From the NCBI GenBank assembly GCA_019695345.1, contig JAIBAE010000024.1, positions 1 to 51,190 on the forward strand: a DNA stretch of 51,190 nt. Direction: 5' to 3'. Of the stretch, positions 10,158 to 14,880 are shown piece after piece. A program made the position numbers and the translations under genes. The stretch is from Bacteroidota bacterium (GTDB lineage: Bacteria; Bacteroidota; Ignavibacteria; Kapaibacteriales; NICIL-2). The notes below the pieces were generated by a model, which saw nothing but the letters and a program-made list of their open reading frames with translations, ran no database searches and was not told where the DNA came from. The first letter of the stretch is position 1. Every line of letters begins with the position of its first letter.

Positions 10158-11342
10158 TTAATTTATTATGTAAATGTTCCCTAATACAGGATCCATCGAG
10201 TTATGCGAGACAATTCTATCAATGAGATGTTCGTGAAGCACTGTACCGGCAGGAACGAGTTTAAGCCCCGAATTGGTGATAACATCTCGTCCTAATTTCA
10301 TACCATCATGCAAGTCATGCAGCTGAACAGCCTTCAATCTACTTCCGGTACTTTGTCCGTACGCAACAGTGGTAACATATTCTTCTAACAAAGCAACAAT
10401 TCTGTGGTCGTAAACATGGCGCACAAACTTTTTGATTTGATTGAGAGCTTCTTCGGATGAAGTACGATGTACTTGTTTATACTCAATGAAGTCCAGAACA
10501 ACACGAAGTATTCTAGAGCCCAACGGAATTTGCCAGTGCTGCTTCCTATCAGGGAAGCCGGTTCCATCGTAATTCTCGTACAGACTTCGTAGAATGATTC
10601 GAACTGTTTCGAGAGACTCAACATTTTGTAGAATAACATCTGCCTGACTTGGTACATTCGCCACAATTTGATTTGACGGACTACCCTCGAAAGATACAGG
10701 CGTATTCAAATCGCCATCCGGTAAATACATCTTTCCAATAGCAAAGAATTTTGTTGCTATTGTTAACGCATCTTTGCTAATTGTTACATGTTCTTCCTGT
10801 GCAAATTGTTCAGCAATCCACAACACCGACTTTTGCATGAACTCTGTAACCGTTGCAACGGAAGGGATGCGCGATTGTATTACTTTTTGAATAACAGAAA
10901 TGTAATCATCGCGTAAGTTTTCTAACTCTTGAACCTTACTAGTGAGTGTTTGATTTTGTACATTTAGTGCTTTTAGTTTACTAATTAACGATGTTGTTGA
11001 GATGAGTTTGTAGTAAGAAATTTTGTTGGTTTCGAACATATGTACTTCATCTGCACCGGAAGCATATGCGTGGTGCATGTCTTTAACATCATTAAGCAAC
11101 GCTATAAAGTGAACATTCTTAAAATGTGCATCGGCATGAATGTTTTTACAGAAAGAAGAAGCGTTAATTGATTCAACATCCCAGTCGCAAAAAATTATAT
11201 CAGGTAGTTCAGAATGTAAAGCATGAATGATACTTGCTGCGGTACGGGAAATGTTAATCTTAAATCCAGAGTTTATTTTATGCAAGAGTTGTTCCAGCAG
11301 ATCTACATCTGTTCGTTCGGATATGATATTTATTGTTAACAT
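10158..11342 (-). CDS. Response regulator with degenerate HD-GYP output domain
   Basis: The product has 394 aa. Residues 1-120 resemble a receiver domain, with the likely phospho-acceptor Asp53 in PDIIFCDWD; the usual Thr/Ser and Lys positions are not well conserved. A coiled-coil linker follows at about 125-155. Residues 165-390 resemble HD-GYP, the cyclic-di-GMP phosphodiesterase fold. However, the HDIGK motif reads FAIGK (F200, A201), so both metal-binding His and Asp are missing, and HHExxDGxGYP reads LYENYDGTGFP around D259. I infer an inactive HD-GYP domain acting as a binding or signalling module. The gene is the last of an operon after motB (8-base gap), which suggests it influences the stator or motility. 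Confidence 0.8.
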   Translation of the reverse strand: MLTINIISERTDVDLLEQLLHKINSGFKINISRTAASIIHALHSELPDIIFCDWDVESINASSFCKNIHADAHFKNVHFIALLNDVKDMHHAYASGADEVHMFETNKISYYKLISTTSLISKLKALNVQNQTLTSKVQELENLRDDYISVIQKVIQSRIPSVATVTEFMQKSVLWIAEQFAQEEHVTISKDALTIATKFFAIGKMYLPDGDLNTPVSFEGSPSNQIVANVPSQADVILQNVESLETVRIILRSLYENYDGTGFPDRKQHWQIPLGSRILRVVLDFIEYKQVHRTSSEEALNQIKKFVRHVYDHRIVALLEEYVTTVAYGQSTGSRLKAVQLHDLHDGMKLGRDVITNSGLKLVPAGTVLHEHLIDRIVSHNSMDPVLGNIYIIN

Positions 11343-11350
11343 AACATTTC

Positions 11351-12337
11351 CTAATGTGATGTAGTACTTTCGTGTTTTGGTAAATGTTCAGTACGCGGGG
11401 GAGCTTCTACCTTGATGTTGTGTTGTTTTAGCTTGTTTTCTACAATCTCATCGGGATTAAGTTGTGATATTACAATTGTTACTCTACGATTGGAAGGATC
11501 GAATGGATTAGCAGTATTGCGTAGTCTTCTATCTGCATATCCCGTTACGTTCATAATCTGTCCCGTCCAAAGCCCGGAGGTTTCTAATATTCTTCTTGCG
11601 GCATTAGCACGTTCTGCACTCAACTCCCAATTTGAGTAACCTGTTTTAGCATTGGGATAACCACGGCTATCGGTATGTCCTTCTAAGGAAACATGATTCT
11701 CAAGCTTACCAACTTCCATACCTACTTGTTTAAGAATTTTAATAGCACTTTTTGTTAGAATTGTACTACCAACTTCAAAGAACACAGTTTCTTTGGTTTC
11801 CATTAACTCAATTCGCAATCCATCGGGGGAAACAGTTACTTGAACGTTATCCAACAACTGTTGTAACTGTGCGTCTTGCTTTGCCATCTCTTGTAAATCA
11901 GCCTGTAGTTTTTGGCTTATCTCATCAATTCTTATAGCAGATTCAATGCTATCCTTAATTGCTTCCTGTTTTAATTGTTTCAGTAAACTATCTACTTGTG
12001 GATTATGTTCAGTGTTTTGGTCTTGTTCAATATCACTTGGCATCATACCGGCATTACCGTTTCCATTTCCTTGATTACCCTTAGAGCCGGCCACGAGTTG
12101 TAAATCTAGTGGAATCTGTTTTCCGGTTGTAAAACTAAACACACCGGGGTCACGAAAGAAACTGGCAATTTTTTGTTTACTATCCGGTGATAGACCTAAA
12201 ATCCACATCACAAGGAAGAACGCCATCATAGCTGTCACGAAATCGGCATACGCAACCTTCCAAGCACCGCCATGATGTCCACCATGACCGCCTTTTTTCT
12301 TTTTCTTGATTATAATGGGTTGTTCGTGCTCAGCCAT
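11351..12337 (-). CDS. motB: Flagellar motor stator protein MotB
   Basis: The product has 328 aa. A Lys-rich cytoplasmic start (IIIKKKKKGGHGG) leads into a single membrane helix WKVAYADFVTAMMAFFLVMW, in which Asp32 is the conserved proton/sodium-coupling aspartate of MotB. The C-terminal half (about 185-310) is an OmpA-like peptidoglycan-binding domain with LEGHTDSRGYP and LSAERANAARR. By family knowledge MotB anchors the MotA ring to the cell wall and completes the ion channel. It starts 5 bases after motA and is followed by the degenerate HD-GYP regulator, so the order on the minus strand is TPR protein, motA, motB, regulator. No other flagellar genes are in the window. Confidence 0.93.
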   Translation of the reverse strand: MAEHEQPIIIKKKKKGGHGGHHGGAWKVAYADFVTAMMAFFLVMWILGLSPDSKQKIASFFRDPGVFSFTTGKQIPLDLQLVAGSKGNQGNGNGNAGMMPSDIEQDQNTEHNPQVDSLLKQLKQEAIKDSIESAIRIDEISQKLQADLQEMAKQDAQLQQLLDNVQVTVSPDGLRIELMETKETVFFEVGSTILTKSAIKILKQVGMEVGKLENHVSLEGHTDSRGYPNAKTGYSNWELSAERANAARRILETSGLWTGQIMNVTGYADRRLRNTANPFDPSNRRVTIVISQLNPDEIVENKLKQHNIKVEAPPRTEHLPKHESTTSH

Positions 12338-12342
12338 AAATA

Positions 12343-13197
12343 TTATTTCACAGATTTAACTGCTTCTTCTGTTTCTTTAAATGAAGGTCTTTCGTGTGGT
12401 TCTATACCACGTCTGCCGTATTCAACTGCTACAACCGAAGGCGCACCTTTGGCAAATGCTAGGATTGCTGCTTTTATACAATTTAGATAATGGTGCTCAG
12501 CAGCAATCATGTGCTCCATGTTTTTTGCAAGAGGTCCAACAAAACCGTACGATAATAGAATTCCTAAGAATGTACCAACAAGAGCTGCCGCAACGCTATG
12601 TCCAATTACTTCCGGTGGTTGATCGATTTTACCCATTGTAATTACAACCCCCAAAACCGCTGCAACGATACCCAAACCGGGGAATGCATCACCAACAGTA
12701 GATAATGCTGCAGGTGCTTTTAGTTCCTCGTTATGCATAGTATCTAAGTCTAAATCCATCAAGTCTTCTAAGTCGTGCGCGGGAACTCCACCGTTCAACA
12801 CTACTTTTAAAGTATCACACAAAAAATCTACGGCATGATGGTTATCGAGAAATGATTTGTATTTACCCATAATTGCACTTGAGGATGGATTTTCGACGTG
12901 AGGTTCCAGTGCAATTAAACCTTCTCTCTTAGCTAACTGGAATAACTCGTACAGAAGCTTTAATATATCTACGTATGCTTCCTTGTTAATTTTTGAACCC
13001 TTTAGAGTGCCCAGAACTCCATGAACAATAGACATTGTTACGGGTAGCGGGTTAGCTATTAACAACGTACCTAATGCAGCTCCACCTATTATAATCAACT
13101 CGGTATATTGAAACAAGATACCAAGTTCACCATGGTGTAATACGTAGCCTAATATTACGCTACCTGTTACTACAACAAAACCAATTATTACAAACAT
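12343..13197 (-). CDS. motA: Flagellar motor stator protein MotA
   Basis: The product has 284 aa, a normal MotA length. Two N-terminal membrane helices (MFVIIGFVVVTGSVILGYV and the one around GGAALGTLL) precede a cytoplasmic region, then two more helices including VGDAFPGLGIVAAVLGVVI and a second ending LLSYGFVGPLA. The AFPGLGIVAAVLG segment is the MotA/TolQ/ExbB-family hallmark with the conserved proline. Together with MotB it forms the ion-driven stator that turns the flagellar rotor. In some Bacteroidota-related lineages MotAB-like pairs might drive other processes, but the long cytoplasmic loop and the MotB partner favour a flagellar role. It begins 18 bases after the TPR lipoprotein gene. 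Confidence 0.92.
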   Translation of the reverse strand: MFVIIGFVVVTGSVILGYVLHHGELGILFQYTELIIIGGAALGTLLIANPLPVTMSIVHGVLGTLKGSKINKEAYVDILKLLYELFQLAKREGLIALEPHVENPSSSAIMGKYKSFLDNHHAVDFLCDTLKVVLNGGVPAHDLEDLMDLDLDTMHNEELKAPAALSTVGDAFPGLGIVAAVLGVVITMGKIDQPPEVIGHSVAAALVGTFLGILLSYGFVGPLAKNMEHMIAAEHHYLNCIKAAILAFAKGAPSVVAVEYGRRGIEPHERPSFKETEEAVKSVK

Positions 13198-13215: not shown

Positions 13216-14880
13216 TTATTTTTCAGGCAGTAAACGCTGTAGTAAATATACTTTTGAATTATCTAATTCGTAGGCACGTCTCCAGGCATCCACTGCTTTT
13301 TCATGCATTCCAAGTTTTTCGTAATTATCGCCCAAATGTTCAAAAAGTGTAGCTGATTTTTGGCTTATAGTACTTGCCTTTTCTAAATATGCTATTGATT
13401 CTGTAAATCTTCCAAGTTTGAACAGTACCCAGCCGTATGTATCTATAAATGAGGCATTGTTACTATCTATCCGTATTGCCCTTCCGGAAAGCTGTAATGC
13501 CCTGTTTAGATTTTTTTCTTGTGTTACTAAAGAGTACGCCAAATTGTTACAAGAAAAGGGGTTGTCTGAGTCTAGTTGGACTGAACGTTCATAACATAAA
13601 TCAGAACTATCCTGTAGTCCCACTTTGTCGAATAAGAACCCCAAATGTCCCCAAAAATCTGTTTGATTGGAATCTAGGCGAATACTCTGTTGCGTTGCAG
13701 CAATTGCCATACGTATCGAATCTTGCCTACTTAAGAATATTGCATACGAAAACCAGATGGCAGGTGAAGTTGAATAGGATGATGTAGAAAGTTTGTACAC
13801 AGAATCACACATACGTAAATCACCACGTTCCTCATAATACGAAGCTATCCTGAGATTAAGATTTGGAGTGTTGCTAGAAAATCTAAGGGCTGTATTAAAA
13901 AATGAGTTAGCATCCTGTGTGTTATTTATTTTATCTGATAACAAGCCGGACAATTCATAGATTTCGGGGTAGGAATTATAACGCACATCAATTTGCTTGA
14001 TAAACTCAGGAATATACTTATTAGTAGAGTCAAGGCTACCATCAAGTAAAGCAGTTCCAATTCGTATTTGATAATTAAACTGTTGTTCAATAGATAACAC
14101 ACTACTATTACGTTGTAAGATATTTAAAGCTTCGCCATATTGTTTCGTAGTTAAATACAACTCTAATAAAGTCTCATCAATGTACGATTTCTCAGGAATG
14201 ACATCGGAAAGTACGCTCATCAACGATATCATTCCTTGGTGCATATCATGCTGCTGATACAAGTTATAGAGTTCAAATAGTATTGCCGGGTCTTCAGATT
14301 CACGTAAAAGTTGTTGAAGCTCTACAATTGCGGTTTTATAATCAATTCTTGAAAGTACTTTAGCATACTTAAACCTACTCTGGTATGTGTTCTCCAATTG
14401 TACTAGCCGATTGTAACACTCAAGCGAGGCTGGGAAATTTGAGCGTGATATGTATAACTCACCTAATAAATCCCAAGCCGGTGCAAAGGATGAATCTAAG
14501 GAAATAGCAGCTTCAGAATATGCGAATGATTGGTTTAGAAGTACCAAATTCTGATAACATCGTGCAATACAGTACAATACAGTAGCATTGGTATCATAGC
14601 GCAGGCTTTGGCTAAACTCATTTATTGCATCGTCGTAACGATAATTCATCTGCGAAACTGAGGCACGAATTACTAAATCTGTAGCTTTTCTCTTAGCATA
14701 TGTGGAATCTTTAAGCCATTCAATGGTTCTTGTCTGATGTTTAATTACTTTGGTATTAGCGCACGAGAGTAAAAATAACAAAGAAGAAAAAGATACGATA
14801 TGAAGGAGGTATGTAATTACTATGTTACTTGATGCTGATGATAAGTAACAAAATGGTAGGTATAATCGTCGGCGTTTCAT
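13216..14880 (-). CDS. Tetratricopeptide-repeat lipoprotein
   Basis: The product has 554 aa. The N terminus has a hydrophobic stretch ending in FLLSCANTK, a good lipobox with lipidated Cys near residue 40; the preceding basic segment MKRRRLYLPF is long for a signal peptide, but no later in-frame Met exists before the lipobox. The body is a chain of helical TPR units (for example DAINEFSQSLRYDTNATVLY, SAPAWDLLGELYISR-type and FTESIAYLEKASTISQKSA near the C terminus). TPR lipoproteins scaffold protein complexes on the outer-membrane inner leaflet. As first gene of the operon with motA, motB and the regulator it may help assemble or position the stator, an inference from context only. The upstream rpmB terminator separates it from rpmB. 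Confidence 0.8.
   Translation of the reverse strand: MKRRRLYLPFCYLSSASSNIVITYLLHIVSFSSLLFLLSCANTKVIKHQTRTIEWLKDSTYAKRKATDLVIRASVSQMNYRYDDAINEFSQSLRYDTNATVLYCIARCYQNLVLLNQSFAYSEAAISLDSSFAPAWDLLGELYISRSNFPASLECYNRLVQLENTYQSRFKYAKVLSRIDYKTAIVELQQLLRESEDPAILFELYNLYQQHDMHQGMISLMSVLSDVIPEKSYIDETLLELYLTTKQYGEALNILQRNSSVLSIEQQFNYQIRIGTALLDGSLDSTNKYIPEFIKQIDVRYNSYPEIYELSGLLSDKINNTQDANSFFNTALRFSSNTPNLNLRIASYYEERGDLRMCDSVYKLSTSSYSTSPAIWFSYAIFLSRQDSIRMAIAATQQSIRLDSNQTDFWGHLGFLFDKVGLQDSSDLCYERSVQLDSDNPFSCNNLAYSLVTQEKNLNRALQLSGRAIRIDSNNASFIDTYGWVLFKLGRFTESIAYLEKASTISQKSATLFEHLGDNYEKLGMHEKAVDAWRRAYELDNSKVYLLQRLLPEK

What the first reader, a model, noticed from the sequence alone, without database searches (positions are those of the whole stretch)
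10158..11342. Stator operon ends with a REC-HD-GYP protein that lacks the HD residues
HDIGK reads FAIGK (F200, A201) and HHExxDG reads LYENYDG, so metal binding and cyclic-di-GMP hydrolysis should be lost. Its place directly after motB suggests a sensor or effector that acts on the stator, analogous in logic but not in fold to YcgR-like control.
Basis: partly seen in the sequence, partly recalled or inferred. Interest (0 to 1): 0.5.

Follow-up and report, generated by a model that had tools for sequence, protein, structure and literature searches.

The report
Dead HD-GYP protein tied to stator
The flagellar stator genes here are followed by a signalling protein whose enzyme site has been dismantled, and the same dead protein stays beside the stator genes across a broad group of bacteria that seem unable to make the messenger it once degraded, so it has probably become a dedicated motor regulator.

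Summary
Window 10158-11342 (-) encodes a 394-aa receiver + HD-GYP-fold protein 8 nt after motB. The HD, HHE and other histidine metal ligands are gone, and the loop segment aligned with PmGH's guanine-binding R314 is deleted.

It is not a local oddity. In 31 of 31 genomes of the order with a strong homologue, that homologue follows motB and lacks HD. Nine loci in seven further genomes of the class keep the linkage at an intermediate stage (HE; Gln for the first His of HHE). dN/dS in near pairs is about 0.03-0.1, so it is no relic.

No PilZ or EAL match was found in 61 genomes, all 56 GGDEF domains lack GG[DE]EF, and the host has no other HD_5 match. Other members do carry an intact standalone HD-GYP, so some cyclic nucleotide is not excluded.

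I read it as a stator-dedicated pseudoenzyme acting by protein contact, phospho-gated where its receiver is intact; in four families, this one included, the receiver is degenerate too. Contact with the stator is inferred, not shown. A dead nucleotide receptor (DvhD-like) is a leading rival. New variant of a known kind.

The parts
10158..11342 (-). REC + degenerate HD-GYP protein, 394 aa, last gene of the stator operon
   Evidence: homologue behind motB in 31 of 31 genomes of the order with a strong match
10983..11342 (-). Receiver domain (residues about 1-120): keeps the phospho-Asp (D53) but has lost the acidic pair, Thr and Lys
   Evidence: Response_reg 24.5 bits, below cut-off; residue table
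10401..10886 (-). HD_5 domain (residues 153-314)
   Evidence: 63.5 bits vs cut-off 27.2; place given
10731..10745 (-). FAIGK in place of HDIGK (residues 200-204)
10563..10583 (-). LYENYDG in place of HHExxDG (residues 254-260); ENxDG is invariant in the stator-linked family
10161..10382 (-). C-terminal region (residues 321-394) conserved in the family and in NosR-type proteins
   Evidence: NF053512 match to residue 389; invariant D384 and G388
11351..12337 (-). motB
   Evidence: MotB_plug and OmpA
12343..13197 (-). motA
   Evidence: TIGR03818, 364.6 bits vs cut-off 303.8
13216..14880 (-). TPR protein upstream of motA, probably same operon
   Evidence: TPR matches; present in 6 of 8 compared loci

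Best explanation
The protein is a stator-dedicated pseudoenzyme. It descends from a REC-HD-GYP response regulator that became fixed behind motB in an ancestor within the class. There it lost its metal ligands in steps (HD, then HE, then neither), lost the loop segment that aligns with PmGH's guanine-binding R314, and kept the HD-GYP scaffold with a new invariant ENxDG[ST]G loop. I infer that the cytosolic scaffold docks on the MotA/MotB stator or its rotor partner and sets stator engagement or torque. Where the receiver is intact, phosphorylation by an unidentified kinase would gate it. In four families, including the window's, the receiver is degenerate, so the input there must be something else or the protein acts constitutively. 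Shown: linkage, degeneration, purifying selection, and no recognisable diguanylate cyclase, EAL or PilZ. Inferred: contact with the stator, its effect on torque, and the order of events.
For: Linkage: MotB immediately upstream on the same strand in 31 of 31 genomes of the order with a strong match; MotA before it in 30, the exception G023 having a split operon. Also in 9 loci of 7 genomes of other families of the class. Distance to motB at most 84 nt in 38 of 40 loci; the other two overlap motB by 4 nt by the ORFs. In eight neighbourhoods only motA, motB and this gene are in 8 of 8; the TPR gene is in 6, any other family in at most 3. Co-occurrence: MotA1 in 34 of 61 genomes, the gene in 31 of those and in 0 of the other 27 at E below 1e-30 (Fisher p 2.6e-14, not corrected for kinship). 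Second stator sets carry their own copy, and G282:C60 and G148:C20 are closest to each other for MotA (68%, partial) and for the HD protein (59%). Ligand loss and loop deletion. Tree: stator-linked rows lie on the other side of one branch (98/88) from 35 other HD rows. Selection: dN/dS about 0.03-0.10 in the near pairs, degenerate f4 receiver 0.016-0.031. No intact DGC, EAL or PilZ. In families without the HD protein the slot after motB usually still holds a receiver: 8 of the 9 other MotA1 genomes among the 38 hand-picked ones. The gene is present in 10 genomes without a CheW match, so it follows the stator rather than chemotaxis.
Against: No contact with MotA or MotB was tested. Joint loss and joint duplication are partly expected from adjacency alone. 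Three MotA1 genomes (G015, G049, G053, one genus) lack the gene. Ten f3 genomes carry a second, unlinked copy, nested in the family. G029 keeps a diverged, unlinked relative (E 4e-19) without MotA1 or FliG. A separate, unlinked REC-HD group of the order (L045, L046, L047, L052) is also degenerate, so losing HD is not special to the stator. The protein diverges fast (24-36% identity) while MotA keeps 54-80%. An intact standalone HD-GYP occurs in 24 of 30 fetched HD_5 loci, so a cyclic nucleotide may exist outside f1. R314 is Arg in only 12 of 23 of those intact proteins and K317 in none, so loss of these residues alone is weak evidence against nucleotide binding.
Confidence: 0.52

Rival explanations
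1. Catalytically dead nucleotide receptor. Like DvhD, the fold binds c-di-GMP or another nucleotide without metal and conveys it to the stator, so it works like YcgR with another fold.
For: DvhD has SQ for HD and Met/Asn for the double histidine, does not hydrolyse, yet binds c-di-GMP (PMC13090378, passages). The GYP-loop residues E278, D281, G282, G284, P286 and I294 are kept. An intact standalone HD-GYP occurs in 24 of 30 fetched HD_5 loci of the order.
Against: 0 of 56 GGDEF domains in the order and 0 of 30 read among further genomes of the class carry GG[DE]EF; PilZ and EAL not found in 61 genomes. The R314 column is a gap in 39 of 39 stator-linked proteins and in 0 of 31 others. G000 and G003-G007 have no HD_5 match besides this protein.
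Confidence: 0.22
2. Response regulator that acts elsewhere (NosR- or HnoD-like allosteric partner, or a kinase or transcription regulator) and is only co-expressed with the stator.
For: Best NCBIfam match is NosR (141.8 bits over residues 124-389), itself described as a degenerate REC-HD-GYP (PMC12570481, passages; HnoD is recalled). Ten f3 genomes carry unlinked copies. In G012 the next gene is FlhF-like (SRP54-type GTPase; the name FlhF is recalled).
Against: The linked copy stays with motB in 40 of 40 loci while other neighbours change. Each duplicated stator set has its own copy. Receivers became degenerate in f1, f4, f6 and f8 while the linkage remained.
Confidence: 0.2
3. Decaying relic of a c-di-GMP phosphodiesterase, kept only by position.
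For: Stepwise loss of ligands; c-di-GMP pathway parts not found.
Against: dN/dS about 0.03-0.10 in the near pairs, also in the degenerate f4 receiver. No stop inside any match with E below 1e-30. 14 invariant columns over 30 members.
Confidence: 0.04

Closest known systems
NosR family response regulator (NF053512; Burkholderia, PMC12570481, passages)
   Same: REC + degenerate HD-GYP + alignable C-terminal region (residues 124-389 align to 154-419 of 422)
   Different: 141.8 bits against a cut-off of 400. NosR is encoded with nosP/nosK and its motif is HG-GTP; here the gene is encoded with motAB and both residues are lost.
DvhD HD-GYP receptor (PMC13090378, passages)
   Same: HD replaced (SQ), double His replaced, non-hydrolytic
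   Different: DvhD is a membrane protein with PAS/HD-GYP domains and binds c-di-GMP. Here the input domain is a receiver, no intact diguanylate cyclase was found, and the loop segment with R314 is deleted.
YcgR / FlgZ / MotI PilZ stator brakes (YcgR: passages; FlgZ, MotI recalled)
   Same: Logic only: a soluble protein presumed to act on the stator
   Different: No PilZ domain; contact with MotA not shown; no intact diguanylate cyclase found.
PmGH / RpfG active HD-GYP phosphodiesterases (PMC4159591, passages)
   Same: HD_5 fold; E278, D281, G282, G284, P286, I294 kept
   Different: All histidine ligands and D222 lost (D305 uncertain), R314 segment deleted.
Bd1817, inactive HD-GYP of Bdellovibrio (named in PMC4159591, passages)
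   Same: Catalytically inactive HD-GYP domain
   Different: Bd1817 still binds two irons through residues that include its HD diad; this family has no HD diad.

Membership tests
HD-GYP fold (Pfam HD_5) | Score over the Pfam cut-off | tested here: met
   63.5 bits vs 27.2, residues 153-314
Active HD-GYP c-di-GMP phosphodiesterase | Metal ligands H189, H221, D222, H250, H276, H277, D305 (E185 in one subgroup) | tested here: not met
   Over 30 members H189, H221, D222, H250, H276 kept in 0 and H277 in 2; D305 place uncertain because an Asp in 29 of 30 lies one column along
Active HD-GYP c-di-GMP phosphodiesterase | c-di-GMP contacts Y285, R314, K317 | tested here: inconclusive
   R314 column deleted in 39 of 39; but Y285 is Phe in 23 of 23 intact proteins of the order too, R314 is Arg in only 12 of 23 and K317 in 0
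Phosphorylatable response regulator (REC) | Acidic pair, phospho-Asp, Thr/Ser, Lys | tested here: not met
   Window keeps only the Asp (D53). Intact in f5, f7, f9, f10, most of f3 and the seven class members read
NosR family (NF053512) | Curated score 400 | tested here: not met
   141.8 bits
PilZ stator brake (YcgR-like) | PilZ domain | tested here: not met
   No PilZ match in the protein or in 61 genomes
PilZ stator brake (YcgR-like) | Binds MotA or the rotor | not testable with these tools
   needs a binding assay
DvhD-type dead nucleotide receptor | Binds c-di-GMP without hydrolysis | not testable with these tools
   needs purified protein; loop deletion and lack of an intact DGC argue against

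The most novel reading that the evidence does not exclude
A bacterial class without recognisable c-di-GMP synthesis controls its flagellar stator with its own operon-encoded signalling protein. In one order and in several other families this is a metal-free HD-GYP pseudoenzyme fused to a receiver that in four families is also dead. A c-di-GMP enzyme would have been rebuilt, by a stepwise route whose stages (HD, HE, neither) still exist, into a stator regulator that needs no second messenger.
Probability: 0.33. Interest if true: 0.78.

Novelty: new variant of a known kind. Interest (0 to 1): 0.6.

Why it matters
The best known stator brakes read c-di-GMP through PilZ domains (YcgR: PMC13432727 passages; others recalled). 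Here a widely conserved stator partner sits in a lineage where no PilZ, EAL or intact GGDEF was found. A specialist could test whether stators have a second, messenger-free mode of control. The case also offers a series showing how an enzyme may become a motor partner, with the intermediate stage present in related families.

Tried and rejected
Structure: AlphaFold2 on the single window protein gave mean pLDDT 36.7; discarded, and no fold search was run. The 30-row alignment was not handed to structure prediction because its stated rule lists loci of other fetching tools only. A profile search of solved structures (best 60 of 295 shown) matched mainly receivers, PleD best; 5z7c, 9rbz and 9rc0 were HD matches. 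A shifted metal site was considered and rejected except for the D305 place.

Searches that led nowhere: genome contigs gave one receiver-only match (L032, residues 48-99); viral contigs with the alignment gave 18 pattern stretches, none a relative. Promoter/terminator scan: 12 promoter-like sites against 17.4 in shuffles, no terminator-like site. The viral fusion-glycoprotein matches (residues about 104-188) look like coiled-coil noise.

Slips found and corrected: one search read a wrong frame for L059 (G033) and for L153; both re-read. In one search two distances (125, 170 nt) came from an inner Met; the ORFs give 4-nt overlaps. There the starts of L010, L012 and probably L139 are not true starts. 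In one search, 19 pairs were listed; YN00 worked for 4 only and NG86 gave no dS for several, so the selection claim rests on the near pairs.

Rows dropped or chosen: L001 duplicates L002. L028 (G057, 341 aa) is in the 31 but not in the 30-row alignment A1. L223 was left out of the intact set (cut). The 38 genomes were hand-picked (36 of the class, 2 not); G274, G235 and G382 were fetched because a receiver had been seen there and are in no rate. Of 39 GGDEF places, 30 were read. One search listed only its best matches and scored 4 candidates a genome.

Literature: of nine searches, 34, 62, 73 and 74 asked about HD-GYP or receivers with motA/motAB/stator. Their listings (0; 20 of 23; 1; 10) showed no title or abstract start on an HD-GYP gene in a motAB operon. 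Of these papers I read passages of one (PMC13432727). Not listed is not the same as not in print.

A wish to scan other phyla failed, so linkage outside this phylum is untested.

Full report
What is there. Window 10158-11342 (-) is an intact 394-aa ORF. Pfam sees a receiver below its cut-off (24.5 vs 30.2 bits) and an HD_5 domain well above (63.5 vs 27.2). Upstream on the same strand are motB (8 nt gap), motA (5 nt) and a TPR protein (18 nt). MotA is a TIGR03818 member at 364.6 bits. The host has FliG and CheW.

The HD site is gone. I aligned 30 own-order members, 9 members from other families of the class and 31 other HD-GYP proteins (23 intact standalone proteins of the order, 8 receiver-HD proteins of the phylum). 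The ligand list comes from the PmGH paper (PMC4159591, passages). In the own order H189, H221, D222, H250 and H276 are kept in 0 of 30 and H277 in 2 of 30. E185 is a carboxylate in 10 of 30, but in 0 of the 31 other proteins, so it says little. At D305 the own order has L, V, Y or H, but an Asp stands one column along in 29 of 30 (D284 in the window), so this ligand may survive. The R314 column is a gap in 39 of 39 stator-linked proteins and in 0 of 31 others. Invariant in all 39 are G224, E278, D281, G282, G284 and P286; I294 is kept in 38. Residue 279 is Asn in 39 of 39 against 1 of 31 in the others. The scaffold and a modified GYP loop are therefore conserved while the catalytic site is not. 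Residue-level evidence on nucleotide contact is weaker: Y285 is Phe in 23 of 23 intact proteins of the order as well, R314 is Arg in only 12 of those 23 and K317 in none.

It is a family tied to the stator. Among 61 genomes (own plus 60 relatives) 45 have a match at E up to 0.001 and 31 a match below 1e-30. In 31 of 31 the best match follows motB on the same strand, and MotA precedes it in 30; in G023 TPR-motA and motB-HD lie on separate contigs, each with other neighbours. MotA1 is present in 34 genomes, counting the frame-split copy in G006. The gene is in 31 of these and in 0 of the 27 without MotA1 (Fisher p 2.6e-14; not corrected for kinship, and adjacency makes joint loss easy). The three exceptions, G015, G049 and G053, are one genus; their MotB has 285 aa against 294-332 in the eight loci. 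In those eight neighbourhoods only motA, motB and this gene occur in 8 of 8.

Outside the order. A profile scan of 395 genomes of the phylum found full-length members (E 2e-76 or better) in seven genomes of other families of the class. All seven have MotA and MotB in front. G148 and G282 have two stator sets, each with its own copy. The sets G282:C60 and G148:C20 are each other's closest relatives for MotA (68%, on a partial sequence) and for the HD protein (59%), closer than the two copies within either genome. These nine proteins read HEIGK; the first His of HHE is Gln in 9 of 9 and the second is Met, Leu, Arg or Ser. The next best matches in the phylum (E 8e-45 and weaker, L142-L149) are not linked to motB by my BLAST and L142-L149 keep HD.

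Tree. In a tree of 85 HD regions, 35 rows (23 intact, 8 receiver-HD, 4 other receiver-HD of the order) and the stator-linked rows lie on two sides of one branch (98/88). The ten unlinked f3 copies fall inside the own-order group, as does L044 of G029 on a long, unsure branch. The four other receiver-HD proteins (L045, L046, L047, L052) are unlinked and also degenerate, so loss of HD has happened more than once. For the stator-linked group the order that fits is HD, then HE, then neither; the direction is inferred.

The slot after motB is mostly a receiver slot. Among 38 hand-picked genomes, 16 have MotA1 over the cut-off: seven with the HD protein, eight with a lone receiver and/or a receiver-HisKA protein after motB, and one (G097) with neither. 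A REC-Hpt protein often precedes motA there; Pfam was run on two of these (L184, L189) and on two receiver-HisKA proteins (L184, L180). Within the own order the phospho-site is intact in f5, f7, f9, f10 and most of f3; it is degenerate in f1 (6 of 6, the window's family), f4 (3 of 3), f6 (1 of 1), f8 (2 of 2) and one f3 member.

Selection. Near pairs give dN/dS about 0.03-0.10 by the two methods; the degenerate f4 receiver gives 0.016-0.031 and the f4 linker-HD part 0.037-0.043. The samples are small and dS is high, but they speak clearly against a decaying relic.

c-di-GMP. PilZ 0 of 61 (control genomes 5 of 14). EAL 0 of 61 (control 6 of 14). GGDEF: one per genome in 56 of 61 (control 8 of 14); 0 of 56 read has GG[DE]EF. 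The host's is a GAF-GAF protein with RLDDN at that place. Of 39 GGDEF places in the 38 further genomes, 30 were read and none is canonical; four read GFDE. Against a complete absence of cyclic dinucleotides: 24 of 30 fetched HD_5 loci of the order hold an intact standalone HD-GYP. In G000 and G003-G007 the stator-linked protein is the only HD_5 match.

Not chemotaxis. Ten of the 31 genomes with the gene (G005, G006, G009, G012, G020, G027, G030, G033, G043, G057) have no CheW match though all ten have FliG.

How it most likely works. Inference from anatomy: a cytosolic scaffold translated with the stator that binds MotA, MotB or the rotor and tunes engagement, with phosphorylation as the input where the receiver is intact. 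That a nucleotide is the input instead (as in DvhD, PMC13090378, passages) is not excluded, but it needs a ligand source this lineage does not show. The closest named family is NosR (PMC12570481, passages), itself degenerate, but the window protein falls below its curated cut-off and lies in another context.

Taxonomy. I infer Bacteroidota from the many large hybrid two-component proteins in other families of the phylum and recall; an Ignavibacteria/Kapabacteria-like lineage is a guess.

Rating. Interest 0.6: the parts are known kinds, but a widely conserved, stator-bound, in places doubly dead signalling protein in a lineage without recognisable c-di-GMP synthesis would surprise a motility specialist and is directly testable.

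Noticed in passing
L053:2193-4535 (G000:C71): The host's only GGDEF match is a GAF-GAF-pseudo-GGDEF protein (RLDDN for GGDEF). One degenerate GGDEF per genome recurs in 56 of 61 genomes, including ones without MotA1.
   Followed up: partly
L184:2224-2940, L184:4970-5635, L189:4178-4978: In other families of the class the stator genes are flanked by REC-Hpt and receiver-HisKA proteins, as if a phosphorelay were built round the stator.
   Followed up: partly
L205, L206, L209 and other HD_5 loci: An intact standalone HD-GYP of about 300 aa (Phe for Tyr in GYP) is in 24 of 30 fetched loci of the order although no intact diguanylate cyclase was found; substrate unclear.
   Followed up: partly
L045, L046, L047, L052: A separate, unlinked receiver-HD group in the order is also degenerate at HD and HHE.
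   Followed up: no
L033-L042: Ten genomes of family f3 carry a second, unlinked copy of the pseudo-HD-GYP protein, nested within the stator-linked family.
   Followed up: partly
L061, L062, L063 (G015, G049, G053): One genus has motAB without the HD protein and a MotB of 285 aa.
   Followed up: no
L044:909-2042 (G029): A diverged, unlinked relative survives in a genome without MotA1 over the cut-off or FliG.
   Followed up: no
Ten genomes with FliG, MotA1 and the HD protein have no CheW match, so they look flagellated without a Che coupling protein.
   Followed up: no
window 13216-14880: A TPR protein lies directly upstream of motA in 6 of 8 compared loci, and in G023 it stays with motA where motB-HD is elsewhere.
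   Followed up: partly
L069:5448-6638: In G012 a gene with an SRP54-type GTPase domain (FlhF-like, name recalled) directly follows the HD gene.
   Followed up: no
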